Assembly (NCBI GenBank): GCA_958296195.1
Contig: OY282455.1
Span: forward strand, 2,418,001 to 2,482,000
DNA from: an uncultured Pseudomonadales bacterium
Lineage (GTDB): Bacteria > Pseudomonadota > Gammaproteobacteria > Pseudomonadales > Azotimanducaceae
Reading direction: 5' to 3'
Length of the DNA: 64,000 nucleotides
Shown here: positions 25,036-42,301 of the stretch, one piece after another
Numbering within the stretch: position 1 is the stretch's first letter
Layout of the letters: each line of letters opens with the position of its first letter
The notes under the pieces: generated by a model
What the model saw: the letters and a program-made list of their open reading frames with translations, nothing else
The model's database searches: none
What the model was told of the DNA's origin: nothing
Program-made: the position numbers and the translations under genes

Positions 25036-26448
25036 TCAGTCGCCGAAGGGGATGCCCTCCCTGTGCAGCCCGGCCATGACCGCTTCAATGGATTCGCGGA
25101 GGATGTTGACCATTTCGTCGATCCCCTCCCTGGTTAGGATCAAGGCTGGGGACAACACGCACAGGTTGTCGATGAGCCGCACGATCATCCCCCGCGCTTG
25201 GGTCTCGCGGTCGATGCGCTTTTCGATGGCAACCTGCTCCGGGAAGAGCGCCTTGGTGCGCCGGTCCTGCACCAGCTCCACGCAGAGCATGAAGTGGCTG
25301 CCGCGCACGTCCCCGACGATGAGCAGGTCGGCTAGGGTTTGCAGGCGCTTGAGGAAGTAGGGGCCGGTCTGGCGCACCCGCCCGCAGAGGTCCTCCCGCT
25401 GCATCACTTCGATGTTGGCCAGGGCCACGGCGCAGGCCGCGGCGTGGCCGGAATAGGTGAACCCGTGGGCAAAGCCGCCGCCGTCCGCACGGGGTTTGGA
25501 CAAGCCCGCGTAAACCCGCTCCGACACTAGGGTGGCGCCCAGCGGCATGTAGCCGGAGGTGATGCCCTTGGCCACGGTGATCATGTCCGGCACCACGCCG
25601 AAGACGGCTTCGCTGGCGAAGAAGTGGCCCAGCCGCCCGAAGCCGGTGACCACCTCGTCGGAGACGTAGAGAATGTCGTTCGCTTCGCACACCGCCTTCA
25701 TGCGCTGGTGGTAGCCGGCCGGCGCCACCAAAACCCCGCCGGCCCCCATGATCGGCTCGGCGAAGAAGGCGGCGATGCGGTCCGCGCCGAGTTCGGCCAC
25801 CTTGCCCTCGAACTCCTCCACTAGATGGTCGCAGTAGGCCGCCTCGCCATTGCTGCCGGGCGGCATCCGGTAGCAGTTGGGGGCGGACAGGTAATGCACC
25901 AGTCCGTCCGGGCTGTGGAAGCCGCGCTTGTCGCTCATCTTGCCGGACAGGGCGGCGCTTAGGTAAGTGCTGCCGTGGTAGGCGTTGCGCCGGGAGATGA
26001 ACAGCCGCTTGGACGGCTTGCCCTGGTTGTTGAAGTAGTAGTGGGCGGTGCGCCCGGCGGTGTCGTTGGCGACGGAGCCGCCGGTGCTGTAGAAGACATG
26101 GTTGAGGTCCCCAGGCGTGAGTTCCGCCAGCTTGGCGGCGAGCTGCGCGGCCGGCGGGTTGCCCAAGTCCGTGAAGTAGGAGTATTGCGGCAGTTCCGCC
26201 AGCTGTTTGGTGGCGGCGTCGATCAGCTCTTGGCGGCCGAAGCCGACGTTGGCGAACCAAAGCCCGCCGATGCCGTCGATGAACTTGCGCCCCTCGGCAT
26301 CCCAAACATGCGCTCCCTCGCCGCGCACCATGATGGTGGCGCCGGTCTGCGGCCAATCCTCGAAGTCCGGCCAAGGATGGATGCAGTGGTCGAGGTCGGC
26401 TTGGCGCAGCTCCTCCGCGTCATAATTCATCAGCGCTGACAACTCCAT
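25036..26448 (-). CDS. Class III aminotransferase (probable beta-alanine/omega-amino acid:pyruvate type)
   Basis: The 470-residue PLP enzyme has the omega-transaminase layout: HPWPDFEDWPQTGATIMVRG near the start, YSTGGSVANDTAGR, RRNAYHGSTYLSAALSG, SDEVVTGFGRLG and the PLP lysine in ITVAKGITSGYMPLGA. Such enzymes move the amino group of beta-alanine, putrescine or similar amines to pyruvate. It was probably originally adjacent to the beta-ureidopropionase gene, whose 3' end is duplicated 45 bp upstream of this gene. That context favours removing beta-alanine or 3-aminoisobutyrate made by pyrimidine breakdown. Exact substrate is inference. Confidence 0.85.
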   Translation of the reverse strand: MELSALMNYDAEELRQADLDHCIHPWPDFEDWPQTGATIMVRGEGAHVWDAEGRKFIDGIGGLWFANVGFGRQELIDAATKQLAELPQYSYFTDLGNPPAAQLAAKLAELTPGDLNHVFYSTGGSVANDTAGRTAHYYFNNQGKPSKRLFISRRNAYHGSTYLSAALSGKMSDKRGFHSPDGLVHYLSAPNCYRMPPGSNGEAAYCDHLVEEFEGKVAELGADRIAAFFAEPIMGAGGVLVAPAGYHQRMKAVCEANDILYVSDEVVTGFGRLGHFFASEAVFGVVPDMITVAKGITSGYMPLGATLVSERVYAGLSKPRADGGGFAHGFTYSGHAAACAVALANIEVMQREDLCGRVRQTGPYFLKRLQTLADLLIVGDVRGSHFMLCVELVQDRRTKALFPEQVAIEKRIDRETQARGMIVRLIDNLCVLSPALILTREGIDEMVNILRESIEAVMAGLHREGIPFGD

Positions 26449-26493
26449 GCTCCCGATCGGCTTCGTTGGTCGGGAGGCGAGTGTAGCCCAAGG

Positions 26494-26537
26494 AGCGGCC
26501 TTTCAGTTAGGGGGCGACCAAGGTTTCGCAGGCGTCC
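26494..26537. repeat. Left 44-bp direct repeat bounding the 3.3-kb island
   Basis: This sequence equals 29849-29892 at 41 of 44 positions with a constant offset of 3355 bp. On the minus strand it encodes DACETLVAP and stop, a near-copy of the last codons of the beta-ureidopropionase (DAYETLVAP) plus bases past its stop. It therefore marks where that gene's 3' end was duplicated. Confidence 0.9.
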
Positions 26538-26581
26538 CCGATGAGGGCCGAGCCGGGGCCCGCACGCCGTGGCCAAGGCGG

Positions 26582-28456
26582 TTACTGAGGGCCGAACTCG
26601 TCTCGGGTGGCTCTTCCGTCGCCGTCAATGTCGGCTTTCAGGGTCGGCAAGCGGTCGGCGCCGCCAAAGTCCCAGCGGCGGCCGCCCCAGGTCCAGCCGG
26701 CGTAGATGCCGTTGTAATCCGTGGGCCGTCGCAACTCGGCGGAAGTTATGCCCGATACGCCCTCGTCGGAGCCGAGGGCGACGCCGGTCCGATCGCTGGA
26801 TGCATCGGCATTCCAGTAGCTGTCGATGACGTAGCCGGTGGTGTTGTTACCGATGAAAGCGCCGGCGCTCTCCATGCCGTCAACAGCGCCGACGGCGTAA
26901 CTGGCCGCCACCACCCCGTCGTTCCAGCCGATCAGGCCGCCGGTTTCGAAGTCGCCCGACACGGTGCCGGCGGCGTAGCTGTTGCTGACCAGGCCATCAT
27001 AGCTGTTGGACCCGACTAGGCCGCCAATCCGGTTGCTGACGCCGCCGCTGGTCACGGCTTGCACGTCGCTCTTGGTGTAGCTGCCGCGCACCACGCCGCC
27101 GTTCCACCCTACGAGGCCGCCCAGATCGCTTTCGCTGCCGGACACCGAGCCGGTCGCGTAGCCGCCGTCGATGATCCCCCGGTTCAGGCCCACCAGCCCG
27201 CCGGTGGCGACGCCGCCCGATACCGCTCCGGTGGCGTAGCTGGCGTCGATCTCGGCGCCGACCCGGTTGACGCCCACCAGTCCGCCGATGCGATGGTTTC
27301 CGGATATGTCCGCTGCGGAGTGGCTCCGCAGCACCCGGGCGTAGTTGACGCCGACCACGCCGCCGGAGTCGCCGTTGAGGACGGAGATGGATCCGGTCGC
27401 GTGGCTGGCGATGACGGAGCCTTGATTGATGGCCACGACGCCGCCGGCCAGATCGGTGGCCGATATCTCGCCGCTGCTCTGACTGGCCTCGACCACGCCG
27501 CCGATATTGATGCCCGTGACGCCCGCGCAGGCCCGGAAGCAGTTCATGAACCCGGTGAAGCGGCTGTTGACGATCCTGCCGAAGAGAGCGTATCCCGCAA
27601 CGCCGCCGCTCAGGACGTTGCTGCTGAAAACAGAGCCGTCGGAGAAGCTGTCCTCAATGAGCCCTCTTTCGTTGAATCCCGTCAGCCCACCGGCCGCGCG
27701 GCTTGCAACCACCACGCCGGATGCGTGGCTGTCGCTGATCGTCCCGTAGGAGTTGATCCCCACCAGTCCGCCGGCGGTGTTGCCGGCGTCAACCAGCGCA
27801 CTGGAATGACTGCCGGAGACCAGGCCCTTGTTGTGGTTGCGGCCGACCAGTCCGCCCACCCCTTGGCCGCCCGCCACGGTGCCTGTGGAGTGGCTGTCGC
27901 GGATGAAGCCGGCGTTCCAGCCGGCCAGGCCGCCGACCCAGTCGCGCCCCCTCAGGTTGACGGTGACCACGCCAATCCCGCCGAGTACGCCGACGTTGCC
28001 CCCGAAAAGGCCCACCGCGTTGCTGTCCGGGCGCTCCACGAAGAGGTGGGCGACGGTGTGGCCGTTACCTAAAAAAATGGCGGCGAAGGGGCGTGTCGGT
28101 TCGCCGATGGGGAGCCATCCGTCGCCCTGGACCCATCGGGACTCGACAGCTCCGGCGGCGTAGCTGGACACGGCCGCAAAGTCGAGGCCGGACGTCAATT
28201 CGTAGCCCACGCATCCCGTGGCGGGGCAGCCCATGCCGGCGTCGGCGTCGGGGAAGGCGGCGGCGTAGGCCGCGGCGTCATCGTCCGCCGCGCCGTCGCC
28301 GTCCAGGTCGTAGCGGATGGCGTCCAACTGCTCTAGGACGGAGACGTCTATGAGGCGATCATCGTCCCGATCGTAGTCCACCGCCTCGGAGGCGGTCGCG
28401 ACCCCGGACGTCGCCAGAAGCAGCGCGACGGCGACACGGTAAATCCTGGTGCCCAT
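26582..28456 (-). CDS. Secreted GLUG-repeat protein with terminal calcium-loop motifs
   Basis: The 624-residue protein has a signal peptide (VAVALLLATSGVATA). It then carries many GLUG-type repeats, about 25 residues each, with cores such as GGLVGRNHNKGLVSGSHS and GGLVGWNGGVVRGSYT, from about residue 140 to 590. Such repeats form beta-helical, surface or extracellular structures. Near both ends are DxDxDG loops (DLDGDGAADD at about 52; DIDGDGRATRDEFG at the very C-terminus) like EF-hand/dockerin calcium loops. GGGAG precedes the ATG. It is the left gene of the island. Adhesion is a plausible role but unproven. Confidence 0.8.
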   Translation of the reverse strand: MGTRIYRVAVALLLATSGVATASEAVDYDRDDDRLIDVSVLEQLDAIRYDLDGDGAADDDAAAYAAAFPDADAGMGCPATGCVGYELTSGLDFAAVSSYAAGAVESRWVQGDGWLPIGEPTRPFAAIFLGNGHTVAHLFVERPDSNAVGLFGGNVGVLGGIGVVTVNLRGRDWVGGLAGWNAGFIRDSHSTGTVAGGQGVGGLVGRNHNKGLVSGSHSSALVDAGNTAGGLVGINSYGTISDSHASGVVVASRAAGGLTGFNERGLIEDSFSDGSVFSSNVLSGGVAGYALFGRIVNSRFTGFMNCFRACAGVTGINIGGVVEASQSSGEISATDLAGGVVAINQGSVIASHATGSISVLNGDSGGVVGVNYARVLRSHSAADISGNHRIGGLVGVNRVGAEIDASYATGAVSGGVATGGLVGLNRGIIDGGYATGSVSGSESDLGGLVGWNGGVVRGSYTKSDVQAVTSGGVSNRIGGLVGSNSYDGLVSNSYAAGTVSGDFETGGLIGWNDGVVAASYAVGAVDGMESAGAFIGNNTTGYVIDSYWNADASSDRTGVALGSDEGVSGITSAELRRPTDYNGIYAGWTWGGRRWDFGGADRLPTLKADIDGDGRATRDEFGPQ

Positions 28457-28487
28457 ATCGTTCTCCCTGTTCGCGCGCCGCGGGCCC

Positions 28488-29690
28488 CTACCGGGCGCCC
28501 GTCAGCTTGTCGACCTGATGCAGCTCTCCGTCCTCGTCGATCACAGTCACGAACACCGCATCCGAACCCTGATTGTCGCCGGGACCGTAATTGAGCTCGA
28601 AACCGTCGATATCGAAGGCGCTGACGGTGCGAAAGGCGTCCAGGAAGCAGGCGCGGGACACCGTGCGGCCGCAGGCCTCCAGACCGGCCACGGCGAGCCG
28701 TCCGGCCAGATATCCCTCCAGCGAAACGTACCCCGGCGAGGCGTCGGGGTCGTATCCGGCCAGCGCCTCGCGATAGGCGGCGACCACGGGGACGCTGTTG
28801 TCGTGCGGCGCCGGCACGACCTGGGTTATGTAGAGTCCGGCCCCGTCCACGCCCAGTTCCGCCAGCAGCGCTTCGCTGCCCACGAAAGAGACGGACATGA
28901 ACACCGGATCGATTTTCCGGCGGGCCATAACGACCAGCTCGGCGATGGGCGCATAGGCGCCGACCAAGATCACCGCTTCCGGCTCGCTCTCGATCATGCC
29001 GAGCAGGGCGCGCTTGATCCCGGTGGTGTTGCGCTCGTAGGACCAGGCGGCGACCGGGGACATGTTGCGCCGCTGCAGCGCCCGGCGGACGCCCTCCAGC
29101 CCCGCTTCGCCGAAGGAGTCGTTCTGGTAGAACACCGCGATGCGCATGACGCCCAGGTCCTCGGTGAGGCGGGCCACCATCTCCTCGGTTTCCTGATAGT
29201 AGGACGCCCGCAGGTTCACTACCTTGTCCAGCGTCGGGTCGCGGAGAAACTCCGCGCCGGTGAAGGGGGCCAGGAACGGCGCCCCGGCGTCCTGCGCCAC
29301 CGGCACCGCCACACGGGAGGTCGGTGTGCCGACTGCGCCGATCAGAGCGAAGACCCGGTCCGCCCGCAGCAGACGCTGGATGTTGGGGAACGCTAGGTTG
29401 GGCTCGTAGGAATCATTCAACGTGGTCAACAGCAGATTCCGGCCGTGGACGCCGCCGGCCGCGTTCGCTTCGTGAAACGCGGCCCGGATCCCCAGCCGCA
29501 TGTCGCGGCCCAATTGCCCGGCCGGCCCGCTCAGCGCGGCGGACTGCCCGAACAGGATGCGGTCCTCATGGACGCCGGGGGCGTCCTCCCCGGTCGCGGC
29601 CAGCGGACCGGCGGCGACGGCGTTGACCAGCACCGCCGCCGCGGCGAGCGCCGTCAACCCGGTTGTGCGCAACGCTGAAGTATGGAGCAT
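28488..29690 (-). CDS. ABC transporter substrate-binding protein, branched-chain amino acid type (orphan)
   Basis: The 400-residue periplasmic protein has a signal peptide (LTALAAAAVLVNAVAAGPLA) followed by ILFGQSAALSGPAGQLGRDM and VFALIGAVGTPTSRVAVPVA, typical of type I (LivJ/Peripla_BP_6) binding proteins. GGAGG lies before the ATG at 29690; a longer upstream frame lacks a signal sequence. No permease or ATPase gene is nearby, so it is an orphan that may act as a sensor partner or use a distant transporter. A perfect -35 TTGACA lies at 29797-29792 but no well-spaced -10 follows. Confidence 0.85.
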   Translation of the reverse strand: MLHTSALRTTGLTALAAAAVLVNAVAAGPLAATGEDAPGVHEDRILFGQSAALSGPAGQLGRDMRLGIRAAFHEANAAGGVHGRNLLLTTLNDSYEPNLAFPNIQRLLRADRVFALIGAVGTPTSRVAVPVAQDAGAPFLAPFTGAEFLRDPTLDKVVNLRASYYQETEEMVARLTEDLGVMRIAVFYQNDSFGEAGLEGVRRALQRRNMSPVAAWSYERNTTGIKRALLGMIESEPEAVILVGAYAPIAELVVMARRKIDPVFMSVSFVGSEALLAELGVDGAGLYITQVVPAPHDNSVPVVAAYREALAGYDPDASPGYVSLEGYLAGRLAVAGLEACGRTVSRACFLDAFRTVSAFDIDGFELNYGPGDNQGSDAVFVTVIDEDGELHQVDKLTGAR

Positions 29691-29848
29691 CGTCGTCCTC
29701 CGTCCGAAACCGCTTCTTCCGGGACAGCCCACCGAATGCCGACAGGTGGCTCCCCGATACGGACACAATATCACAGCACCTCACCCCGTCTTGTCAAGGG
29801 GCTTGCGCTGTGCCCCATTTCCGCATTTTAGGTCGCTTTCCGGCAAGC

Positions 29849-29892
29849 AGCGGCCTTTTGGTTAGGGGGCGACCAAGGTTTCGTAGGCGTCC
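29849..29892. repeat. Right 44-bp direct repeat, at the 3' end of the beta-ureidopropionase gene
   Basis: This copy includes the functional stop and last ten codons of the beta-ureidopropionase plus 13 bases beyond. It differs from the left copy at three positions, one of which changes Tyr to Cys in the encoded tail. Two of the differences lie outside coding sequence. Confidence 0.9.
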
Positions 29893-30728
29893 GGACGGCG
29901 GTCGCGGTAGAACTGCCAGGTGGAGCGCACTTCGTCGAGCAGTGCCAAATCCAGTTCCGCGATCAGCAGCTCGTCCTGATCTTCAGACGCTTGGGCGACC
30001 ATCTGGCCGCGGGGGTCCACGAAGTAGCTGCGCCCGTAGAAGGTGCCGAGGTTCCACGGCGCCTCAACGCCCACCCGGTTGACGCAGCCCATGAAGTAGC
30101 CGTTGGCCACCGCGTGGGCCGGTTGCTCCAACTCCCACAGGTGGGCGGAGAGGCCCTTCACCGTGGCGGAGGGGTTGTAAACGATTTCCGCGCCGCGCAG
30201 CCCCAAGGCCCGGGCGCCTTCCGGGAAGTGCCGGTCGTAGCAGATGTACACGCCCACCTTGGCGTAGGCGGTGTCGAACACTGGGTAGCCTAAGTTGCCG
30301 GGGCGAAAGAAGAACTTCTCCCAGAAACCGGCAGTGTGCGGAATGTGGGTCTTGCGGTACTTGCCGAGGTAAGCGCCATTGGCGTCAATGACCGCCGCGC
30401 TGTTGTAGAGAATCCCGGGCGCCTCCTTTTCGTAAAGGGGCACGATCATCACCATTTTGTATTGAGCGGCATAGTCGGAGAGGCGGTCGGTGGTCGGCCC
30501 CGGCACTGGTTCGGCGGTGGCGAACCAAGCGGCGTCCTGGCTGGGGCAGAAGTAGGGCGCGTTGAATATCTCCTGCAGGCACAGGATTTGCACACCCTGC
30601 CGCCCCGCCTCCTCGATGAGCGGAATCTGCTTTTGGGTCATGGCCTCCAGGATTTCGTGCTTGGGCGCCGCCTCGTCCAACCGCGGTAGGGACGCTTGAA
30701 TGAGGCCCGATTTCACCGTTCTTGGCAT
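29862..30728 (-). CDS. Beta-ureidopropionase / N-carbamoyl amino acid amidohydrolase
   Basis: The 288-residue nitrilase-superfamily enzyme has the Glu-Lys-Cys triad: LQEIF (about Glu53), KYRKTHIP (about Lys126) and CYDRHFPE (about Cys161). CLQEIFNAPYFCPSQD and WEKFFFRPGNLGYPVF are typical of N-carbamoyl-beta-alanine or N-carbamoylputrescine hydrolases. It releases ammonia and CO2 from carbamoyl amino acids. The dihydropyrimidinase gene lies 24 bp upstream on the same strand, which favours the beta-ureidopropionase reading. GGAG precedes the ATG. Confidence 0.9.
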   Translation of the reverse strand: MPRTVKSGLIQASLPRLDEAAPKHEILEAMTQKQIPLIEEAGRQGVQILCLQEIFNAPYFCPSQDAAWFATAEPVPGPTTDRLSDYAAQYKMVMIVPLYEKEAPGILYNSAAVIDANGAYLGKYRKTHIPHTAGFWEKFFFRPGNLGYPVFDTAYAKVGVYICYDRHFPEGARALGLRGAEIVYNPSATVKGLSAHLWELEQPAHAVANGYFMGCVNRVGVEAPWNLGTFYGRSYFVDPRGQMVAQASEDQDELLIAELDLALLDEVRSTWQFYRDRRPDAYETLVAP

Positions 30729-30752
30729 CTGCTGCTCCGTCGCTTGGCTTTT

Positions 30753-32147
<1,395 letters not shown>

Positions 32148-32168: not shown

Positions 32169-33917
32169 CTAATTCGTCGAGCCTTGTCCGCCGGTGGATG
32201 CAGCGGAGACCTGTGCGGTCGGCCTAGGCGGTGGTTGCGCTTCCCGAAAAAGCTGCCGAGTGTGGGACATCAGCAGTCCATAGAGCACGAAGGACGTCAG
32301 GCACCCGGAAAACCAGGACGCGGTGTAAAGCCAGCCTAGCGCCGGAACGAAATAGCCAATAAGCGCAACAGCGACGCCGGCCGCCAAGGCCGCCATCGCT
32401 GCGGGGTTTACGCCGCTTCGATAGGAGTAGGCGCCGTTGGGGTCGAACAGGTCCGGCAGCGAAACCTGAGTGCGGCGCACCCAATAGTAGTCCGCGAGCA
32501 TGACGCCGAGCACCGGCCCTAGGAAGCCGCTGACGAACACCAACAGATCGCTGATGCGGTCGAACAGCAGCCAGGGCACGATGCACACCCCGATGACGCC
32601 CGTGATCAATCCGCCTCGACGAAAGCTCAGCACCCGGGGCCGGAGGTTGGCGAAGGCGTTGGCCGGCGCCACCACATTGGCGGCGATGTTGGTGGTGAGG
32701 GTGGCGACCAACAGGATCGACTGGGCGGTGACCACCACCATTGGGCTGTCGAATTGGGCCACCAAGGAAACCGGGTCCCAAGGCGCGTCCTCAGCCGTTA
32801 GGATGTCGTCGAAGCCAACCAGCGCCGCACAGGTCACAAACACGCTGACGAAGCCGTACAGCAGCATGGTGCCGGGCAACCCCAACAACTGGCCCACTGC
32901 TTGATCTCGCTGGCTGCGTCCGTATCTGGTGATGTCGGCTATGCTGATGGACATGGTGGCCCAAAAGCCCACCATTGCTGTGATCCAAAACAGCCAGGAG
33001 GCGACTTTGGACGGCGACGCCTTTGCTTCCCTGACTGGCGACGGCGACGACAGGGATTGCCCGCGGCGGAACTGAACCACGAGATCTGCGGGCTTAAGCC
33101 ATCCATTCCCTTGAGCGCGATGAGCGGCAATTTCCGTCGGCGGCACGATCAAGGGGCTGCCTTGAACTGGCCGCCAAGGAGCGCTTTCCAGCCGGGACGG
33201 CGGGGCGATTCGGTAAGCGTCCGCCTTCCAACTGCCGTCAAGCTCGCGCAATGGGGACAATTCCACCGCGCCATCGTCTCGGTACTGGGCTGTGGGGCTT
33301 TCGAGTTGGCCGCTTTGGCCGAGTATGGCGGCGGGGCTATGGGCCTGGCCGGACGCCCATCCCATCAGGGCCAGACCGACCAATAGCAACATGGGCGCCG
33401 CCAAGCGCTCCAGTTGGCGGATGGATTCGGTTCCGCGCCATACAAAGAACAGCATCAGCCCCCAGGAGATGGCAAATGCGCAGAACTTGCCGGCGCTCAG
33501 CCCAGACTCGATGGGCGCTCCAACCAAGGTGCAGGCGATGGCGTGAATTGCCAAACCGCCGATCCACGTCTGAACGCCAAACCAGCCGCAGGCGACCAGC
33601 GCCCGCGCCATGGCCGGGACATGCACGCCGACCACCCCGAACGGCGCTCGCCCGAGCACGGCGAAGGGTAAGCCGTACTTCGAGCCGGCCTGTCCATTCA
33701 AGATTAGGGGCGCGGTCACGATCAAGTTGGCGACGAAGATGATCGCCAAAGCCTCCCCCCAATTCAGACCGCTCCGTATCATGTAGCTGGCGAGGATGTA
33801 GGTGGGTATGCAGGCCGCCATCCCCACCCAAACGGCGGCAATGTCCCAAGTGCTCCAAGTGCGTTGCACCTTGGGCGTTGGCGCCAAGTCCGGCGAATAG
33901 AGCGGCGAGGTTTCCAT
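32169..33917 (-). CDS. NCS1-family nucleobase/hydantoin/allantoin permease with extra loop
   Basis: The 582-residue inner-membrane transporter has about 12 helices. NWGEALAIIFVANLIVTAPLILNGQAGSKYGLPF, PAMARALVACGWFGVQTWIGG and GPVLGVMLADYYWVRR are NCS1 signatures. A polar stretch of about 110 residues (about 194-304: DDGAVELSPLRELDGSWKAD ...) interrupts the membrane core and makes the protein about 90-100 residues longer than usual members. I chose the ATG at 33917; one at 33950 is also in frame. It starts 60 bp after the TonB-receptor gene ends, so both probably share a transcript. The substrate is likely a pyrimidine, hydantoin or allantoin. Confidence 0.85.
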   Translation of the reverse strand: METSPLYSPDLAPTPKVQRTWSTWDIAAVWVGMAACIPTYILASYMIRSGLNWGEALAIIFVANLIVTAPLILNGQAGSKYGLPFAVLGRAPFGVVGVHVPAMARALVACGWFGVQTWIGGLAIHAIACTLVGAPIESGLSAGKFCAFAISWGLMLFFVWRGTESIRQLERLAAPMLLLVGLALMGWASGQAHSPAAILGQSGQLESPTAQYRDDGAVELSPLRELDGSWKADAYRIAPPSRLESAPWRPVQGSPLIVPPTEIAAHRAQGNGWLKPADLVVQFRRGQSLSSPSPVREAKASPSKVASWLFWITAMVGFWATMSISIADITRYGRSQRDQAVGQLLGLPGTMLLYGFVSVFVTCAALVGFDDILTAEDAPWDPVSLVAQFDSPMVVVTAQSILLVATLTTNIAANVVAPANAFANLRPRVLSFRRGGLITGVIGVCIVPWLLFDRISDLLVFVSGFLGPVLGVMLADYYWVRRTQVSLPDLFDPNGAYSYRSGVNPAAMAALAAGVAVALIGYFVPALGWLYTASWFSGCLTSFVLYGLLMSHTRQLFREAQPPPRPTAQVSAASTGGQGSTN

Positions 33918-33977
33918 CGCGCCCCCCAATTGGGCGGTTCCTCCCGTCATGCTTGATGCACCGGGATGTTGGCATCG

Positions 33978-36245
33978 TTATAAGCGGTAACGCACCTTGA
34001 CGCCAAATTCCCGTCGATCCGTATTCCACAGGGCGAAGCCGATGAAGCCGGGGAAGTAGTTCCGCACCCGGGTGTACTTCTTGTCCGCTAGGTTGACGCC
34101 GTAGGCCGCCAAGCTCCACTTTTCATCTGGCGACAGGTACTCCACCCGGGCGTTGAACAGCCCGTAGGCGCCTTCCCGCTCTTCCGGCGCATTGGCGATT
34201 TGGCCGAAAAAGGCGCTGCGGTAGGCGTAGTCGGCCCGCAACAGGACGCTGCCGCCGCTTGGCAGCGGCACATCGACTTGGGGAGAGATGCTGTAGGTGT
34301 ATTTGCTGACGTAGGGCAGCCGGGAGCCCTTGCTGAAATTGGCGTTCAGGGACGGGTCGATATCGACCTCCGCGATCTTCGCGTCCGTGTAGCTGAAGCT
34401 GCCCACCACTCGGACAGCGGGGGAAAGTACGGCGGTCAACTCCAGCTCCACGCCGTTGATTTCCGCCTTCGCGGCATTCAGGGTGCGGGTGTCAAAGGCG
34501 TCCGCCAAGGCGTTGACCTGGGCTTGGTAGTCGTCATAGTCGCTGGTGTAAAGGGCGATGTTGGTGCGCAGGCGGTTGTCGAGGGCCTCCGCCTTTAGGC
34601 CGACTTCGTACATATCGACGTATTCCGGGTCGTAAACACCGACGCTGGAGGGCCGCGATGGCCGTGCGCCGAAGCCGCCGCTGCGGAACCCTCGTGAGTA
34701 GGTGGCGTACAGCATGGCGTCCTCGGTGATCTTGTATTGGATGCTGACGGTGCCGGACACCGCATCCCAGGAATCGTCCAGAGAGGTGGGCGGAACCCGG
34801 TAAACCGGCTGTCCTTGGTCGTTCAAGGCCTGTTGCCCGTTGGCGTCCAAGGAGCGGTAAACGACATCGTAGTCCTTGTCTTCGTTGGTGTAGCGCAGCC
34901 CGGCAGTCAGGCTGACCCTTTCCGACAGGTCCACCGTTCCCTGGCCGAAGACGGCGTAACTGCTGACCTCCACGTCGGACCGGCGTTGGTCCAGCGCTCC
35001 GAACTGATTGTCATCCTGAAGGTTGTAGCCGTCCTCCGTGAAGTAGTAAGCCCCGGCAATCCAGTTCAAGGTGCCCGCATCATTCTGCCCAACTAATTGA
35101 AATTCTTGGGAAAACTGGTCCGATTTGCCGGATTCCAGATAGTGGATCACAACTTGGGGGGCACCGTCGAACTCCAGGTTGCCCAGATACTCCATGTCCC
35201 GGTAGGCCGTGATCGACTTAAGGCTTAGCCTGTCATTCAGGTCCCAACTCCAGGTTGCGGATAGACCGAACAAGTCTTGCTCCGTGTCCAGATCATCCAG
35301 GGAATAGCTGTCGAAGGGGTCGCCCTCAGTACCCGATGGGCAGGGGACGTACGGCTCCGCGCCAGTGCCATTGGTGTAGCAGGTGGAGATGCCCAACCAG
35401 GGCGCATGTGCGTAGAAGCTGTGCGGCATGGCGGCTTGCCGTGCCCGTGTCATGTCCGCCGCCAACGAAAATTCAGCGGCGTCGCCCTGCCAGAACAGTT
35501 GCGCCCGGGCGCTGACGCTGTCTTCGTCGCCGCTTTCCTCCCGCGTAAAGATCTGCTCGCCAACGCCGTCCCGCTTCTTGCGCTGCACCCCGGCCCGCAC
35601 CGCGGTCCGCTCGCCAAGGGCGAGTTCCCCTGCCGCCAAGACGTTGAAGCGGCCGTCTTCGCCGACGGTCAACTCCACTTCGCCGCCGTTCTCCATGCTG
35701 GGTTTGCGGCTGACCACGTTCACTGCGCCGCCGATGGTGTTCTTGCCGAACAGGGTGCCTTGCGGACCGCGCAGGACCTCCACCCGCTCAAGGTCAAGCA
35801 GATCCAAGGCGGCGCCTTGGTTGCGCCCGACATACACCCCGTCGATGTACAAACCCACCCCAGGGTCGGTGGTCACCATGTGGTCGGACTGGCCGATGCC
35901 GCGCAGGAACATGGCCCCCGCCTCGGAACTGCCCATGCCGTAGGAGGTGAAGGCCATGCCGGGGGTGTACTTGCCGATGTCCCGTAGGTCGATCATGTTG
36001 GCCTGCTGCAGCGCGTCGGCGGAAAAAGCGGTAACGGAAATGGGCGTCTCCTGCAGGGACTCCTCCCGCTTGCGGGCCGTGACGATGATTTCATCAATGA
36101 GCGTTCCCGTTGTGTCGGAGATGCTGATCGCGGCCTCTTCGGCCAACAGCCAATTGGGCACCAACAGACTGAGGACGCCAGTGAGCAGCCATTGGCTGCA
36201 AGACGCCCAGCAGAGCGGCATGGTTGATTGGTTGGCCGTTTCCAT
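33978..36245 (-). CDS. TonB-dependent outer-membrane receptor
   Basis: The 755-residue receptor has a signal sequence (WLLTGVLSLLVPNWLLAEE), a TonB-box-like segment (DEIIVTARKREESLQETP), a plug domain with FLRGIGQSDHMVTTDPGVGLYIDGVYVG and VEVLRGPQGTLFGKNTIGGAVN, and a 22-strand barrel ending VKVRYRL. It is of the large, generic group common in marine bacteria that import organic substrates. GGAGGT precedes the ATG at 36245. It is the first gene of the pyrimidine-type run and its promoter overlaps a RutR-like operator, so it may import a nucleobase-related compound; this is inference. Confidence 0.9.
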   Translation of the reverse strand: METANQSTMPLCWASCSQWLLTGVLSLLVPNWLLAEEAAISISDTTGTLIDEIIVTARKREESLQETPISVTAFSADALQQANMIDLRDIGKYTPGMAFTSYGMGSSEAGAMFLRGIGQSDHMVTTDPGVGLYIDGVYVGRNQGAALDLLDLERVEVLRGPQGTLFGKNTIGGAVNVVSRKPSMENGGEVELTVGEDGRFNVLAAGELALGERTAVRAGVQRKKRDGVGEQIFTREESGDEDSVSARAQLFWQGDAAEFSLAADMTRARQAAMPHSFYAHAPWLGISTCYTNGTGAEPYVPCPSGTEGDPFDSYSLDDLDTEQDLFGLSATWSWDLNDRLSLKSITAYRDMEYLGNLEFDGAPQVVIHYLESGKSDQFSQEFQLVGQNDAGTLNWIAGAYYFTEDGYNLQDDNQFGALDQRRSDVEVSSYAVFGQGTVDLSERVSLTAGLRYTNEDKDYDVVYRSLDANGQQALNDQGQPVYRVPPTSLDDSWDAVSGTVSIQYKITEDAMLYATYSRGFRSGGFGARPSRPSSVGVYDPEYVDMYEVGLKAEALDNRLRTNIALYTSDYDDYQAQVNALADAFDTRTLNAAKAEINGVELELTAVLSPAVRVVGSFSYTDAKIAEVDIDPSLNANFSKGSRLPYVSKYTYSISPQVDVPLPSGGSVLLRADYAYRSAFFGQIANAPEEREGAYGLFNARVEYLSPDEKWSLAAYGVNLADKKYTRVRNYFPGFIGFALWNTDRREFGVKVRYRL

Positions 36246-36282
36246 GTGCGCACACCTCCATGCGGATGACAGACGAATTGAA

Positions 36283-36311
36283 CCTATATAGATAATTGAC
36301 ATTTTTGTCAA
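36283..36311 (-). promoter_or_regulatory. Promoter of the TonB receptor and pyrimidine-type operon
   Basis: On the minus strand a perfect TTGACA -35 (36311-36306) and TATAGG (36288-36283) are 17 bp apart, about 38 bases before the receptor ATG. The -35 lies within the palindromic operator. Confidence 0.55.
36296..36311. promoter_or_regulatory. RutR-type operator, TTGACATTTTTGTCAA
   Basis: The 16-bp site has perfect inverted half-sites, TTGAC and GTCAA, with six bases between, the same layout as the E. coli RutR box TTGACCANNTGGTCAA. A related site (13 of 16 identical) lies before the luciferase-like gene at 41193. A RutR-like regulator gene lies in between at 40454. Confidence 0.65.
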
Positions 36312-36345
36312 TCATATCTGTCAAATTTTATGCAAGTCCGGCTGT

Positions 36346-36359: not shown

Positions 36360-36529
36360 GCCCTAATCCCCTAATAAGGATTTGGCGGGTGAAGTTTGTT
36401 GGCGGTTTGGACTGGCGGAAGGATCTGGCGGCGCACCAGTTAGTCCAGCGGCTGGGTGTCCCGAGGCACGAGGATGACCCTGTGGACGGGGAAGCTCCCC
36501 TTAGCCGTCCTGCCTCGGTCCCGGTCGGC

Positions 36530-37372
36530 CTAGGGGCGCAGCCGGGCTTCCACGCCGGCGAAGGCGGCCTCATCCAAGGCCGCGATCAGACAGCGGTGCC
36601 AATGCAGAGCGGCTGGAGATAGGTCCGCCTCAGGTTCAGGCACCGCACCGAAGTGCCCAGAGCGGTCCTCTCCCCGGACGAGCATCGCAAAATCGCGGCT
36701 GGCGACGATCTGCCTGTTGTGCGGCGCGACATAGTTGATGGTCAGGCCGCAACGCATGATGTCTGAGGGATTTGCCGGGGAGGCGTGCAACAGGTGGCCG
36801 TGGTGCAGGGAAAACTGCCCAGGTTCAAGCTCGACATGCACGGCATCCGCCTCGTCAACATCGACTTGGGCCACTTGGCCGCGATAGAGAAGGTTATCGA
36901 CGTTGAACTTGTCCTCGTGGTCAACCAAGCCTAGCTGGTGGGACCTAGGCATGAACTTCATGCAGCCGTTCGCTTTGTTGACCGGGCCTAGGGCGAGCCA
37001 GGCGCTGACCAGGGCATCGCTGTCGCGGAGGCCCCAATAGCGCAGGTCTTGATGCCAACTGACATAATCGGCGGTGTGGGGCTTCTTGATGAAGAAGGTG
37101 GAGCCCCAAACTAGGATGTTCGGGCCAAGAACGGCTTCCACCGCATCAAGAATGCGCTCGTTGCGCACGATTTCGTTGACGAAGCAGAGCACGGCGTGCA
37201 TCTGATTGAGCTGGCCGTTGTGGGCAATCTTCGCTTCCTGCAGTGCCCCCTCCAGCGAATCGAATCGATGGCGATAGCCCGCCGCTTGAGTGGCGGTCAT
37301 GGCGTCAAGCGGGAAAATGAACCCTTCCCTCAAGAAGGCTTCCCTGACGAGATTTTGATCGATGCTTTGCAT
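36530..37372 (-). CDS. Phytanoyl-CoA dioxygenase (PhyH) family oxygenase
   Basis: The 280-residue Fe(II)/2-oxoglutarate-type oxygenase has the iron-binding HQD of YVSWHQDLRYWGL and the distal His in HHGHLLHASPAN, followed by Arg for 2-oxoglutarate (RCGLTINY). The ANGCMKFMPRSHQLGLVDH segment is a strong PhyH hallmark. The ATG at 37372 has GGAGACAGG upstream. It is the last gene of a leftward run with NIPSNAP, GMC oxidoreductase and uracil-DNA glycosylase genes. Substrate unknown; it could hydroxylate a small molecule or amino acid derivative. Confidence 0.9.
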   Translation of the reverse strand: MQSIDQNLVREAFLREGFIFPLDAMTATQAAGYRHRFDSLEGALQEAKIAHNGQLNQMHAVLCFVNEIVRNERILDAVEAVLGPNILVWGSTFFIKKPHTADYVSWHQDLRYWGLRDSDALVSAWLALGPVNKANGCMKFMPRSHQLGLVDHEDKFNVDNLLYRGQVAQVDVDEADAVHVELEPGQFSLHHGHLLHASPANPSDIMRCGLTINYVAPHNRQIVASRDFAMLVRGEDRSGHFGAVPEPEADLSPAALHWHRCLIAALDEAAFAGVEARLRP

Positions 37373-37489
37373 GGCCTGTCTCCAGCGCACATTATGGCAC
37401 TGAACCATGCCTGTAAGGCGGCGCTCCATTCGGATTTCCGTAGTTTCCCTCAATGAACTGTCCCCGGCGGCACCCCTAGTGAAAATCCG

Positions 37490-37810: not shown

Positions 37811-37822
37811 TGTGCTGCCTCC

Positions 37823-39454: not shown

Positions 39455-39470
39455 CTTGGCTTGCCCTCCG

Positions 39471-40331
39471 TTACCAATGAATGGGCCGCGCCAGCAGCGC
39501 CAGCAGCTTTTCGTTGCAGCGAATGAAGGGGTTGGGGCCGCGCAGAAAGTCGTTGCCCGCAGCTGGGTGTGGGGAGGCGACGAACAAGGGATGGCGGTCG
39601 ATTTCGCCGCACTCGACAACGCCGCTGGCGGCGGCGGCCTGTCGCGCCGCCTCGCCGAACAGCATGAACGTCACGGACTGGTCGCCACGTTCGGCGAAGT
39701 GCCGGATGAGGTGCGCCATCAAGGGCCGCCAGAGCGGCAGATGGCCGTTGGTTTGGTGCGGGTCCCCTGCCACTGCGAAGCGGCTGAGGGTAAGGCTGGC
39801 GTTGAGCAGCAGCACGCCTTGATCCACCCAGTGTTGGGCAAGCTGCTGCGGTCTCTGGAAGCCAGTGCCGGCCGCCTGAATGGCCTCGATGGTCGCCGCC
39901 CAGCCGTCTGTTTCGTTGGTGTGATCCTGATGGCCCGAACGAAACGCGTATAGGCTTTGGATGAGGCTGCGCATGCTGCATGAGCGCATGTTCTCCAGTT
40001 CCCGCCAATGCCGGTGCTCGCCGGTTTCAAAGGCTCGCCCGGTGCTGAACGCGATGTTGGGGTAGGGGTCCTGGCCTATCAGGACGCAGCGCACGTCGTG
40101 GGGACTGAGGTTGTCAAAGGCGCGGAACAGGTGCGCTCCAACTGGCGCTCCCGGAAGCGGGAAGTGGTGCCGGGACGGAAAGATCGGCTCCCAGGGATGG
40201 AGCTCCAGTTCCGCAGCCACGGCGTCAAACGCCAATTGAACGCCGCCCAGCACCTGAAGCCACTCCGGGCTCAGGTCGGCCTGCCAACCGGACAGCATTT
40301 CCCGCAACGCTTCCTTTAGGGGCGTCGCCAT
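39471..40331 (-). CDS. Uracil-DNA glycosylase, divergent family 1 member
   Basis: The 286-residue protein has LIGQDPYP (motif A with the water-activating Asp), LLLNASLTL and SPHPAAG, where family 1 enzymes have SPHPSPLS, so the catalytic His is kept but the following Ser-Pro is not. It is about 60 residues longer than E. coli Ung. It removes uracil from DNA. GGGGGG lies before the ATG at 40331. The gene stop is 16 bp before the GMC start, placing a DNA-repair enzyme at the head of a catabolic run, which is odd. Confidence 0.8.
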   Translation of the reverse strand: MATPLKEALREMLSGWQADLSPEWLQVLGGVQLAFDAVAAELELHPWEPIFPSRHHFPLPGAPVGAHLFRAFDNLSPHDVRCVLIGQDPYPNIAFSTGRAFETGEHRHWRELENMRSCSMRSLIQSLYAFRSGHQDHTNETDGWAATIEAIQAAGTGFQRPQQLAQHWVDQGVLLLNASLTLSRFAVAGDPHQTNGHLPLWRPLMAHLIRHFAERGDQSVTFMLFGEAARQAAAASGVVECGEIDRHPLFVASPHPAAGNDFLRGPNPFIRCNEKLLALLARPIHW

Positions 40332-40369
40332 GCGTCCCCCCCTTGCGTTTTGCGCTCGTGTGCGGCGGC

Positions 40370-40375
40370 TATAAT
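40370..40375 (+). promoter_or_regulatory. Perfect -10 box ahead of the RutR-like gene
   Basis: A consensus TATAAT lies 79 bases before the regulator ATG in the 122-bp divergent gap shared with the uracil-DNA glycosylase gene. No convincing -35 lies at 16-18 bp, suggesting an activated or weak promoter. Confidence 0.5.
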
Positions 40376-40453
40376 GACGGTTGCCCGCACATCGGCTGGT
40401 GCAAGGCCCCGCCGGGCACCAAGGCAGAACGCCAAGACAGGGAGGCGGCCCCC

Positions 40454-41071
40454 ATGCCCCGCACACTGAAGGCGCGCGACAAGAAGGAGGCGAGGATTCT
40501 CCGCGCCACCGAGAGACTGCTCGCCACCCGCGGCTTCCACGGCACCCGCATGGATGACATCGCCCGGGCGGCCCGCCTGCCGAGACCGAACCTGTACTAC
40601 TACTTTTCCTCCAAGCGCCAGATTTACCGGCGCATCATCACCGAACTGCGCAACGAGTGGATCAAGGCCTTCGAGCAGATCACCCCGGACCGCGAACCGC
40701 AGGAAGCCATCGCCGACTACATCCGGGTGAAGATCGAATACTCCCGCAAGCATCCCGTGGCCTCCAAAATCTTCGCCAAGGAGGTGATTCGCGGCTCGGA
40801 CATGCTGACCAAGGAGGAAAACGACGAAATCAAAGCGCTGACGGACGAGAAATGCGCAGTGGTCCGCCAGTGGATGGACGAGGGCAAAATGGACGCCATG
40901 GACCCACGCCACTTCTTCTTCCTGCTTTGGGGCGCCACCCAGTACTACGCCGACTTTGAGCAGCAGATCAAGAGCATCCTCGGCGTCAAGCGGTTGACGG
41001 CGGCGCAGTTTGCAACAGGCCTGGATACGGTGACTCATATCGTTCTCAAAGGCTCCGGCCTCATCGGTTGA
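40454..41071 (+). CDS. TetR-family regulator of the RutR type
   Basis: The 205-residue protein has an N-terminal helix-turn-helix (GFHGTRMDDIARAARLPRPN then LYYYFSSKRQIY, about residues 27-60). Its C-terminal ligand domain has ASKIFAKEVIRGSDMLTKEE, DEKCAVVRQWMDEGKMDAMDP and FFLLWGATQYYADFE, which match the RutR/YcdC ligand-binding domain. RutR in E. coli senses uracil and thymine and controls pyrimidine use. The ATG at 40454 follows GGGAGG. Its probable targets carry TTGAC...GTCAA sites at 36296 and 41193. Ligand is inference. Confidence 0.88.
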   Translation: MPRTLKARDKKEARILRATERLLATRGFHGTRMDDIARAARLPRPNLYYYFSSKRQIYRRIITELRNEWIKAFEQITPDREPQEAIADYIRVKIEYSRKHPVASKIFAKEVIRGSDMLTKEENDEIKALTDEKCAVVRQWMDEGKMDAMDPRHFFFLLWGATQYYADFEQQIKSILGVKRLTAAQFATGLDTVTHIVLKGSGLIG

Positions 41072-41173
41072 TGTCGCTGGCCGTCGGAATTGGTTTGCAG
41101 CTCAGGGCTCCTTGCGGTCGCCGGGCCGCACTCCCGCCGCGGCGTCCAGGAAACGGCTTGGGCGCAGCGATAG

Positions 41174-41202
41174 TTGCCCAATGTACAATTTGCTGACATT
41201 AT
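41174..41202 (+). promoter_or_regulatory. Promoter of the luciferase-like gene
   Basis: TTGCCC (41174-41179) and CATTAT (41197-41202) are 17 bp apart; the -10 lies inside the RutR-type operator. The leader would be about 75 bases. Confidence 0.45.
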
Positions 41203-41208
41203 CGTCAA
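41193..41208. promoter_or_regulatory. RutR-type operator, CTGACATTATCGTCAA
   Basis: This imperfect palindrome (TGAC / GTCA with six bases between) matches the receptor operator at 13 of 16 positions and overlaps the -10 of the luciferase-like gene. Confidence 0.55.
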
Positions 41209-41284
41209 ACTTTTTTGTCGGAAAAACTGCTAGGGCGCGGCTGGCGGCGGCGCTCGGCAGGTGACAGCTCCCAAGGAGGCCGCG

Positions 41285-42301
41285 ATGATGGACTTTGGCG
41301 TTGTCCTGCAGACCAATCCCCCGGTCCGCGCTGTGGTGGAACTGGCCAAGCGGGCCGAGGCGAACGGCTTCACCCATGTTTGGGTGTTTGATTCGCCGGT
41401 GCTCTGGCAGGAGCCCTTCGTGGTCCTGTCCCGGATTCTGGCGGAGACGGAAAGAGTCGTCGTCGGACCGATGGTCACCAATCCCGGCAGCCGCGACTGG
41501 ACCGTGCTCGCCTCCGCCTTCGCCACCTTGAACGAGCAGTACGGGCCGCGAACCATCTGCGGCATGGGCCGGGGGGACTCGGCCTTGCGCTACATCGGTC
41601 GCAAGCCCCGCTCCTTGGCGGAGATGGCGGAGGCCATGCGCGTTGTCAAGGGCTTGGTGGCGGGGGAGGCCGTTGCTTACCAAGGCAAGGACGTTCGCTT
41701 CCCGTGGCTGGAGCGGGGTTGGGACCTGCCCATGTGGGGGGCCGGATACGGGCCTCGGGCGTTGGACTGCATCGGCCGCCATGCGGACGGATTCATTCTG
41801 CAGCTAGCGGACCCGCAGATTCTCGAATGGACTCTGGGCGCCGTGAGGCAGGCCGCCGCTGCGCAGGGCCGCGAACCGAACGGCGTTGCCACCTGCGTAG
41901 CGGCGCCCGCCTATGTGGGTGCCGACCTTGCCCATCAGCGTGAGCAACTGCGTTGGTTCGGCGGCATGGTGGGCAACCATGTGGCGGACATCGTCAAGCG
42001 CTATGGGGAGGGGTCGGGTCGTGCGCCGGAGGCGTTGACGGACTACATCAAGCAGCGGGAAGGCTACGACTACGCCCACCATGGCCGGGCCGGCAACCCC
42101 AGCACGGACTTTGTGCCGGACGAAATCGTCGATCGCTTCTGCCTGCTTGGCCCGACCGAGGAGCACATCGCCAAGCTCAGGGCGCTGCACGGGATAGGCG
42201 CGGACCAGTTCGCCATCTACCTCATGCACGACGCCAAGGAGGAAACTCTGGACGCCTACGGGCGCATAATCCTGCCGGCGCTGCAAGCACCAAGCCCTTA
42301 G
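41285..42301 (+). CDS. Luciferase-like (F420/flavin) oxidoreductase
   Basis: The 338-residue TIM-barrel enzyme starts MMDFGVVLQTNPPVRAVVEL and has VGPMVTNPGSRDWTVLASAF, GRGDSALRYIGRKP and GYGPRALDCIGRHADGFILQL, typical of F420-dependent members of the luciferase-like family. It resembles, from memory, the group named after Colwellia CPS_4043 (TIGR03842), found near dihydropyrimidinase-type genes. RutA, the uracil ring-opening enzyme, is a flavin member of the same superfamily, but this is not a close match by eye. AAGGAGG precedes the ATG. It could act on the same substrate as the leftward pyrimidine-type genes. Confidence 0.82.
   Translation: MMDFGVVLQTNPPVRAVVELAKRAEANGFTHVWVFDSPVLWQEPFVVLSRILAETERVVVGPMVTNPGSRDWTVLASAFATLNEQYGPRTICGMGRGDSALRYIGRKPRSLAEMAEAMRVVKGLVAGEAVAYQGKDVRFPWLERGWDLPMWGAGYGPRALDCIGRHADGFILQLADPQILEWTLGAVRQAAAAQGREPNGVATCVAAPAYVGADLAHQREQLRWFGGMVGNHVADIVKRYGEGSGRAPEALTDYIKQREGYDYAHHGRAGNPSTDFVPDEIVDRFCLLGPTEEHIAKLRALHGIGADQFAIYLMHDAKEETLDAYGRIILPALQAPSP

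What the first reader, a model, noticed from the sequence alone, without database searches (positions are those of the whole stretch)
25036..42301. Regulated pyrimidine- or hydantoin-type catabolic supercluster with its own outer-membrane receptor
TonB receptor, NCS1 permease, dihydropyrimidinase, beta-ureidopropionase and omega-aminotransferase lie in pathway order on one strand, with a RutR-like regulator and a luciferase-like enzyme nearby. The usual first enzyme, dihydropyrimidine dehydrogenase, is not in the window. The natural substrate may thus be a dihydropyrimidine, hydantoin or related cyclic ureide, or the luciferase-like enzyme may supply an alternative first step. A TonB receptor for such a compound would be new to me.
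Basis: partly seen in the sequence, partly recalled or inferred. Interest (0 to 1): 0.72.

Follow-up and report, generated by a model that had tools for sequence, protein, structure and literature searches.

The report
F420-dependent uracil breakdown gene cluster
This bacterium appears to break down uracil-type compounds with an enzyme that uses the unusual cofactor F420 in place of the standard first enzyme, together with its own outer-membrane importer and a shared genetic switch.

Summary
The genes are as described; TonB receptor, NCS1 permease, dihydropyrimidinase and a CN-hydrolase form a tight operon, and PreA is absent from the whole genome. The "luciferase-like" gene is TIGR03842, an uncharacterised putative F420 family. 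My reading: it supplies the missing first step, F420H2-dependent reduction of the pyrimidine ring. (1) 43 of 43 TIGR03842 genomes tested encode CofE, against 4 of 348 sampled Pseudomonadota; the window's genome has a full F420 pathway. (2) In marine Proteobacteria the gene usually ends a cof-npdG operon near pyrimidine genes; in a second phylum dihydropyrimidinase lies nearby in 44 of 60 loci. (3) Among dihydropyrimidinase-bearing genomes PreA occurs in 7 of 40 with TIGR03842 and 68 of 90 without. (4) The window's only two YTGAC-N6-GTCAR sites precede the receptor operon and this gene, as in six relatives; RutR-type boxes precede cofG in 19 of 47 marine loci, against 30 of 4,000 random stretches. 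Against: no assay exists, some genomes carry both systems, some loci lack pyrimidine neighbours. My searches found no report of this in print.

The parts
41261..42301 (+). TIGR03842 luciferase-like (LLM) enzyme, proposed F420H2-dependent pyrimidine reductase; likely start 41288
   Evidence: TIGR03842 539.6 bits, cut-off 295.45; nearest solved structures are F420-dependent reductases
40343..41071 (+). RutR-like TetR regulator; likely start 40454
   Evidence: TetR_C_3 and TetR_N; only solved-structure matches are RutR; RutR equivalog cut-off not met, 174 of 368 bits
33978..36311 (-). TonB-dependent outer-membrane receptor, first gene of the operon; likely start 36245
   Evidence: Plug and beta-barrel Pfam domains; ortholog start in L042; order kept in 6 of 6 relatives
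32169..33950 (-). NCS1-type permease
   Evidence: PF02133 306.9 bits; nearest solved structure Mhp1 hydantoin permease
30753..32147 (-). dihydropyrimidinase / D-hydantoinase family enzyme
   Evidence: TIGR02033 623 bits, cut-off 393.25; nearest solved structures D-hydantoinases and dihydropyrimidinases
29862..30728 (-). CN-hydrolase, proposed beta-ureidopropionase
   Evidence: PF00795; nearest solved structures CG3027-PA and beta-ureidopropionase, N-carbamoylputrescine amidohydrolase close behind
25036..26448 (-). class III (omega-) aminotransferase, probable later step; not in the operon
   Evidence: NF005447 661.3 bits, cut-off 618; separated by a block inverted in L221
36296..36311 (.). operator candidate TTGACATTTTTGTCAA before the receptor operon
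   Evidence: perfect TTGAC-N6-GTCAA site, kept in the relatives
41193..41208 (.). operator candidate CTGACATTATCGTCAA between regulator and LLM gene
   Evidence: kept in L042, L045, L047, L050, L051, L052
39471..40466 (-). uracil-DNA-glycosylase-superfamily protein next to the regulator; membership in the system uncertain; likely start 40331
   Evidence: PF03167 30.2 bits, cut-off 24.3; neighbour kept in L042, L045, L047, L050, L051, L052

Best explanation
A reductive pyrimidine catabolic system whose first enzyme, normally the iron-sulfur flavoprotein dihydropyrimidine dehydrogenase (PreTA/PydA), is replaced by an unrelated F420-dependent enzyme of family TIGR03842. Proposed route: the TonB receptor and the NCS1 permease take up a pyrimidine-type compound; NpdG makes F420H2 from NADPH; the TIGR03842 enzyme passes hydride from F420H2 to the C5=C6 bond of uracil or thymine; dihydropyrimidinase opens the ring; the CN-hydrolase frees beta-alanine or beta-aminoisobutyrate; an aminotransferase and a semialdehyde dehydrogenase finish. 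A RutR-like repressor controls the receptor operon and the reductase gene through matching palindromes. Shown from sequence: gene content, operon order and its conservation, the F420 genes, absence of PreA and RutA matches, the conserved palindromes. Inferred: the cofactor actually bound, the substrate, the direction of the reaction, binding and ligand of the regulator, and the cargo of the receptor.
For: TIGR03842 match and nearest solved structures F420-dependent: 10 of the 12 sequences found carry such names or are methylene-H4MPT reductases, which use F420. Full F420 gene set in the window's genome over cut-offs. CofE in 43 of 43 TIGR03842 genomes tested against 4 of 348 sampled Pseudomonadota. 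G148 operon cofG-H-D-C-E-npdG-TIGR03842 beside RutR-like, M20 carbamoylase, NCS1 and dihydropyrimidinase genes. Of 80 named loci, 65 hold cofE and 66 hold at least one of dihydropyrimidinase, M20, CN-hydrolase, NCS1 or RutR-like gene in the stretch held. Of 60 loci from a second phylum, 44 hold dihydropyrimidinase and 52 hold dihydropyrimidinase, CN-hydrolase or M20. PreA 7 of 40 against 68 of 90 among dihydropyrimidinase genomes. Paired operators in the window and six relatives. RutR-type boxes before cofG, 19 of 47 at <= 2 mismatches against 30 of 4,000 random stretches. Genes for NADPH supply, transhydrogenase PntAB, near some of the operons. Precedent: a putative F420/FMN oxidoreductase is genetically needed to reduce uracil C5=C6 in mureidomycin (PMC10714638, passages).
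Against: No assay of any family member was found. 7 of 43 genomes have both PreA and TIGR03842, so the substrates may differ. 3 of 43 have no dihydropyrimidinase over cut-off; in two of them (L046, L049) the gene sits by other genes. 14 of 80 named loci have none of the pyrimidine-type genes of my panel in the stretch held, and neither annotated plasmid region (Paracoccus, Leisingera) shows a dihydropyrimidinase. No cof gene lies in the 60 loci of the second phylum, and CofE was tested in only one genome of that phylum (G359). The window's own F420 genes are about 1.15 Mb away and have no such operator at <= 1 mismatch in the 20 kb read. The precedent enzyme showed no activity in vitro. PreA statistics are not corrected for kinship.
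Confidence: 0.7

Rival explanations
1. Same mechanism, other substrate: the enzyme is an F420-dependent ring reductase, but for another pyrimidine or cyclic ureide (thymine only, a methylated or modified pyrimidine, a hydantoin-type compound).
For: 7 of 43 genomes carry PreA as well, and in 6 of these 7 there are two dihydropyrimidinases over cut-off, as if two substrates were handled. L043 has a hydantoinase B gene nearby. The permease is nearest to the hydantoin permease Mhp1, and dihydropyrimidinases and hydantoinases are one family.
Against: RutR-type boxes and RutR-like genes point to uracil or thymine control (that RutR senses these is recalled), and 33 of 40 dihydropyrimidinase genomes with TIGR03842 have no PreA.
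Confidence: 0.17
2. The enzyme acts at the end of the pathway: an F420-dependent reductase or dehydrogenase of malonate or methylmalonate semialdehyde, while the cluster starts from a dihydropyrimidine or hydantoin taken up as such.
For: Other luciferase-like F420 enzymes act on alcohols and aldehydes (recalled; Adf, FGD among the matches). In L046 and L049 the gene is next to an aldehyde dehydrogenase and no dihydropyrimidinase is found over cut-off in the genome.
Against: Aminotransferases and aldehyde dehydrogenases of the MMSDH type already serve that end in several loci. It would not explain the scarcity of PreA among these genomes.
Confidence: 0.07
3. The enzyme is an FMN-dependent monooxygenase that opens the pyrimidine ring oxidatively, as RutA does.
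For: Same superfamily (PF00296) and a RutR-like regulator next to it.
Against: CofE in 43 of 43 genomes, F420 genes in the same operon in most marine loci, solved relatives F420-dependent, and hydrolytic genes of the reductive route rather than rut genes beside it.
Confidence: 0.04
4. The luciferase-like gene is a bystander and the cluster degrades a ready-made dihydropyrimidine or hydantoin.
For: PreA and RutA have no convincing match in the genome, so without this enzyme the cluster would start at the ring-opening step.
Against: Linkage with pyrimidine genes in two deep groups of the family and the matching operators.
Confidence: 0.02

Closest known systems
Reductive pyrimidine degradation with dihydropyrimidine dehydrogenase (PreTA/PydA)
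   Same: Dihydropyrimidinase, a carbamoyl-amide hydrolase, NCS1 permease, aminotransferase and a RutR-like regulator; PreA loci of five double genomes carry dihydropyrimidinase and M20 in 5 of 5 and a RutR-like gene in 4 of 5
   Different: No PreA in the genome; an F420-type luciferase-family enzyme in its place; a TonB receptor in the operon
Rut pathway (RutA-G with RutR)
   Same: RutR-like regulator, similar operator half-sites, and a luciferase-superfamily enzyme
   Different: RutA no match at E <= 1e-60 in the window's genome, over cut-off in 1 of 43 relatives' genomes; hydrolytic genes of the reductive route instead
SSGG-03002 / NpsU of uridyl-peptide antibiotic clusters (PMC10714638, passages)
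   Same: A putative F420/FMN oxidoreductase needed for reduction of the uracil C5=C6 bond
   Different: Biosynthesis of an antibiotic, nucleoside-bound uracil, no in vitro activity; whether it belongs to TIGR03842 was not tested here
Putative F420-dependent yanthine reductase of Chloroflexota (PMC12507026, passages)
   Same: A luciferase-family F420 enzyme proposed to replace an iron-sulfur flavoenzyme in reductive ring breakdown
   Different: Uric acid pathway, Chloroflexota, proposed from gene neighbourhood only
F420-dependent methylenetetrahydromethanopterin reductase (Mer)
   Same: Best solved-structure match of the family (172 bits for the profile)
   Different: Distant; archaeal one-carbon metabolism, which has no counterpart in this cluster

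Membership tests
TIGR03842 | Match over the curated cut-off (295.45 bits) | tested here: met
   539.6 bits
F420-dependent luciferase-like hydride transferases | Host makes F420 | tested here: met
   CofGH, CofC, CofD, CofE, NpdG over cut-offs in the window's genome
F420-dependent luciferase-like hydride transferases | Binds and uses F420 | not testable with these tools
Reductive pyrimidine (Pyd/Pre) pathway | PreA / dihydropyrimidine dehydrogenase | tested here: not met
   Best 29.7 bits, cut-off 335, whole genome
Reductive pyrimidine (Pyd/Pre) pathway | Dihydropyrimidinase | tested here: met
   TIGR02033 623 bits, cut-off 393.25; hydantoinase activity cannot be told apart by sequence
Reductive pyrimidine (Pyd/Pre) pathway | Beta-ureidopropionase | tested here: inconclusive
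   Nearest solved structures CG3027-PA and beta-ureidopropionase, N-carbamoylputrescine amidohydrolase almost equal; no NCBIfam cut-off met
Rut pathway | RutA | tested here: not met
   No match at E <= 1e-60 in G000
RutR | RutR equivalog models TIGR03613 and NF011584 | tested here: not met
   174 of 368 and 155.3 of 230 bits; nearest solved structures are nevertheless RutR
RutR | TTGAC-N6-GTCAA type operator before target genes | tested here: met
   Sites at 36296 and 41193, kept in relatives; binding not shown
NCS1 transporters | PF02133 and TIGR00800 | tested here: inconclusive
   Pfam met (306.9 bits); TIGR00800 302.5 bits, cut-off 353.1; the match is split by an insert
TonB-dependent receptors | Plug and beta-barrel domains | tested here: met
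   PF07715 and PF00593 over cut-off; cargo not testable

The most novel reading that the evidence does not exclude
TIGR03842 is an F420H2-dependent dihydropyrimidine dehydrogenase, an unrelated replacement of PreTA/PydA found in two phyla. In many marine Proteobacteria the whole F420 biosynthesis operon is kept under RutR control for the sake of pyrimidine catabolism. In the window's lineage the same regulon includes a TonB receptor for a pyrimidine-type compound.
Probability: 0.6. Interest if true: 0.86.

Novelty: new variant of a known kind. Interest (0 to 1): 0.77.

Why it matters
A 2021 review of F420 lists as an unanswered question why newly identified producers such as Proteobacteria make this cofactor (PMC8498797, passages). 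The gene order, genome co-occurrence and RutR-type boxes found here give a directly testable answer for marine Proteobacteria. If true, the first step of reductive pyrimidine breakdown has an independent solution with another fold and cofactor, TIGR03842 gets a function, and pyrimidine-type compounds join the possible cargo of TonB receptors.

Tried and rejected
Rejected: a missed PreA (whole-genome search); RutA; the aminotransferase as part of the operon (two unrelated genes lie between, and their block is inverted in L221); PhyH (36530-37453) as part of the system (in L042 the DNA there is not alignable and holds an MFS-type gene by my reading). RutR-type boxes before the TonB receptors of L059 and L119 were looked for and not found at up to 3 mismatches. 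The 20 kb around the F420 genes of the window's own genome showed no TTGAC-N6-GTCAA site with at most 1 mismatch. Five near relatives of the enzyme (L043, L044, L046, L048, L049) that lack the window's neighbourhood also have no such site near my panel genes. An invertible element as cause of the 3.2-kb inversion was checked; no long, good inverted repeat was found at its borders.

One search returned the best 80 of 150 relatives. The 43 genomes are G000, G148 and 41 of the 80 named loci; 42 loci were asked for, one (L078) was not held and was left out later, and 38 were not submitted, many of them single-cell genomes or near kin of submitted ones. Of 79 TIGR03842 genomes, one region was fetched for 60, mostly the higher-scoring; 19 were not looked at. 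In one search, 47 of the 48 loci with a cofG match were used. Counts in loci are lower bounds where contigs end.
Full report
Observation. Along the - strand: TonB receptor (33978-36311), NCS1-type permease (32169-33950), dihydropyrimidinase (30753-32147) and CN-hydrolase (29862-30728), with gaps of 27, 21 and 24 bases. The aminotransferase (25036-26448) is on the same strand but beyond two unrelated genes. On the + strand lie a RutR-like regulator (40343-41071) and a luciferase-like enzyme (41261-42301). The window lies in a single-contig genome of 4.31 Mb. PreA has no convincing match in all of it: the best scores 29.7 bits against a cut-off of 335.

Downstream enzymes and regulator. The dihydropyrimidinase scores 623 bits against a cut-off of 393.25 on TIGR02033; its nearest solved structures are D-hydantoinases and dihydropyrimidinases. 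The CN-hydrolase is nearest to CG3027-PA (195.5 bits) and beta-ureidopropionase (185), with N-carbamoylputrescine amidohydrolase at 184.5, and reaches no NCBIfam cut-off, so its name is likely but not settled. The permease is nearest to Mhp1. The regulator's three solved-structure matches are all RutR, but it does not reach the RutR cut-offs (174 of 368 and 155.3 of 230 bits).

The luciferase-like enzyme. It belongs to TIGR03842 (539.6 bits, cut-off 295.45), which the library names only by family number. A profile of 46 members finds 12 solved sequences at E <= 1e-10: six methylenetetrahydromethanopterin reductases, four other F420-dependent enzymes, a 'luciferase family protein' and an alkanal monooxygenase chain. 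The family is rare in sampled Pseudomonadota: 2 of 348 genomes over cut-off.

F420. In the second of these genomes, G148, the gene ends a run cofG-cofH-cofD-cofC-cofE-npdG-TIGR03842, each F420 gene over an equivalog cut-off, with a RutR-like gene, an M20 carbamoylase and an NCS1-type permease on the other side and a dihydropyrimidinase next to these. The window's genome has a full set about 1.15 Mb away: fused CofGH, CofC, CofD, CofE and NpdG, all over cut-off. 43 of 43 TIGR03842 genomes tested have CofE over cut-off, against 4 of 348 in the Pseudomonadota sample. G136, which shares G148's genus code, lacks TIGR03842, CofE, dihydropyrimidinase and PreA alike at the limits used.

Neighbourhoods. 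The genome-contig scan kept the best 80 of 150 relatives. By tblastn at 60 bits or more, in the stretch held: cofE 65 of 80, cofD 64, npdG 61, cofH 52, cofC 51, cofG 48, M20 carbamoylase 45, RutR-like 38, dihydropyrimidinase 35, NCS1 25, CN-hydrolase 6. At least one of dihydropyrimidinase, M20, CN-hydrolase, NCS1 or RutR-like: 66 of 80; 14 of 80 have none. In the phylum of G359 (record titled Dactylosporangium, Actinomycetota) 79 of 396 genomes carry TIGR03842 over cut-off. I fetched one region for 60 of the 79: dihydropyrimidinase in 44 of 60, NCS1 31, CN-hydrolase 29, M20 23; any of dihydropyrimidinase, CN-hydrolase or M20 in 52 of 60. Recurrent orders on one strand are CN-hydrolase - dihydropyrimidinase - TIGR03842 - NCS1 and dihydropyrimidinase - aminotransferase - M20 - NCS1 - TIGR03842. 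None of the 60 holds a cof gene, and in this phylum CofE was tested, and found, only in G359. In a quick tree (rooted on a distant paralog) the enzymes of cof operons in marine Proteobacteria and those of the second phylum form two deep groups; the window's enzyme sits with gammaproteobacterial relatives inside the second. The link with pyrimidine genes holds in both.

Replacement of PreA. In the 348-genome sample 92 have dihydropyrimidinase and 68 have PreA; all 68 are among the 92. Without the two TIGR03842 genomes, 68 of 90 dihydropyrimidinase genomes have PreA. Of the 43 TIGR03842 genomes, 40 have dihydropyrimidinase and 7 have PreA, these 7 within the 40. The contrast, 7 of 40 against 68 of 90, gives Fisher p = 5.5e-10; the sets were drawn differently and kinship is not corrected, so it is a guide only. 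In 6 of the 7 double genomes there are two dihydropyrimidinases over cut-off, one on the contig of PreA; the other is on the contig of cofE, within about 12 kb, in 3 of the 6. Five of the seven PreA loci were fetched; all five hold dihydropyrimidinase and M20, four a RutR-like gene. RutA is over cut-off in 1 of 43.

Shared control. The window holds exactly two sites of the form YTGAC-N6-GTCAR, with about 0.18 expected from base composition: 36296-36311, 50 bases before the likely start of the receptor, and 41193-41208, between the regulator and the TIGR03842 gene. At one mismatch to TTGAC-N6-GTCAA the window has four more sites, inside genes. The six relatives with the same neighbourhood (L042, L045, L047, L050, L051, L052) have the second site in the same place and the first before the receptor (for L045 in L225, from the same genome). 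In L042 a transposase gene, by my reading, lies between that site and the receptor. In three of the six extended loci there is also a perfect site inside the dihydropyrimidinase gene, probably a by-product of its conserved sequence. The order receptor - NCS1 - dihydropyrimidinase - CN-hydrolase holds in 6 of 6 extended loci, with a gap of about 1.5 kb after the receptor in two (L222, L225); in L224 an MMSDH over cut-off follows. In marine loci the E. coli-type RutR box (consensus recalled) lies before cofG: at most 2 mismatches in 19 of 47, at most 3 in 29 of 47, against 30 and 134 of 4,000 random stretches of the same loci; L096 has a perfect one, and 10 of 47 have nothing better than 5 mismatches. 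The F420 operon itself thus appears to be under pyrimidine control in many of these bacteria.

Reading. The simplest account is that TIGR03842 is an F420H2-dependent pyrimidine ring reductase, the first step of the pathway. The reductive direction fits NpdG and the transhydrogenase genes near some operons: PntB-type in 6 and PntA-type in 5 of the 80 loci by clustering, with one example each confirmed by Pfam, and annotated in Leisingera. A chemical precedent exists: a putative F420/FMN oxidoreductase is genetically required for reduction of the uracil C5=C6 bond in mureidomycins, although its activity was not reconstituted (PMC10714638, passages). A putative F420 enzyme has been proposed as a yanthine reductase in Chloroflexota (PMC12507026, passages).

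Against it. No assay exists. Seven of 43 genomes carry both systems. Three of 43 lack a dihydropyrimidinase over cut-off (L046, L049, L095), and in L046 and L049 the neighbours are different. L043 has a hydantoinase B neighbour. The Paracoccus and Leisingera plasmid regions show the cof-npdG-TIGR03842 run without a dihydropyrimidinase.

Print. Searches of F420 with dihydropyrimidine dehydrogenase, Colwellia (22), dihydrouracil (26), pyrimidine + luciferase-like + Proteobacteria (27), dihydropyrimidinase (46), uracil or pyrimidine degradation (70), the name TIGR03842 (90), and two with luciferase-like and dihydropyrimidinase terms listed no paper that, from titles, starts of abstracts and the passages I read, makes this claim; one search had 195 papers, of which 25 were listed. 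One search on TonB, pyrimidine and RutR (47) gave three papers; passages of one, PMC5343134, were read and mention neither F420 nor a luciferase, and no TonB receptor for pyrimidines; the other two were seen as listings only. The library holds only openly licensed papers, so a subscription paper may hold the claim.

Noticed in passing
window 26557-29772 against L221 6495-9720: A 3.2-kb block with an ABC-type binding protein and a repeat protein is inverted between the window and its nearest relative (95% identity), with collinear flanks and no long inverted repeats at the borders.
   Followed up: partly
window 39471-40466: A weak uracil-DNA-glycosylase-superfamily protein (PF03167, 30.2 bits) stands back to back with the RutR-like regulator and is kept in six relatives; it might be linked to uracil.
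   Followed up: partly
window 32169-33950: The NCS1-type permease match is split by an insert of roughly 95 residues (about residues 216-310), absent from the G148 permease.
   Followed up: no
L042 2967-4292: A transposase-like gene, by my reading, sits between the operator and the TonB receptor gene; it might cut the receptor off from its control.
   Followed up: partly
L068 17557-18549, L088 16100-16873, L103 1370-2233: NMT1/THI5-like binding proteins and ABC transporter genes (Pfam) recur near the TIGR03842 operon in 17 to 20 of 80 loci, perhaps an alternative pyrimidine importer.
   Followed up: no
L227 (Paracoccus alcaliphilus plasmid), L229 (Leisingera aquaemixtae plasmid): The complete cof-npdG-TIGR03842 run is carried on plasmids, which may help to explain its scattered distribution.
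   Followed up: partly
L122 8220-9236 (own genome, G000): Another luciferase-like gene stands divergently next to npdG in the window's own F420 region, so the genome has further candidate F420 enzymes.
   Followed up: no
L125 (G174): A partial cofE match with three TGA stops in a Pseudomonadota genome, perhaps a decayed F420 gene.
   Followed up: no
window 36530-37453: A PhyH-family protein with weak similarity to chlorinating enzymes lies upstream of the receptor; not kept in L042.
   Followed up: partly
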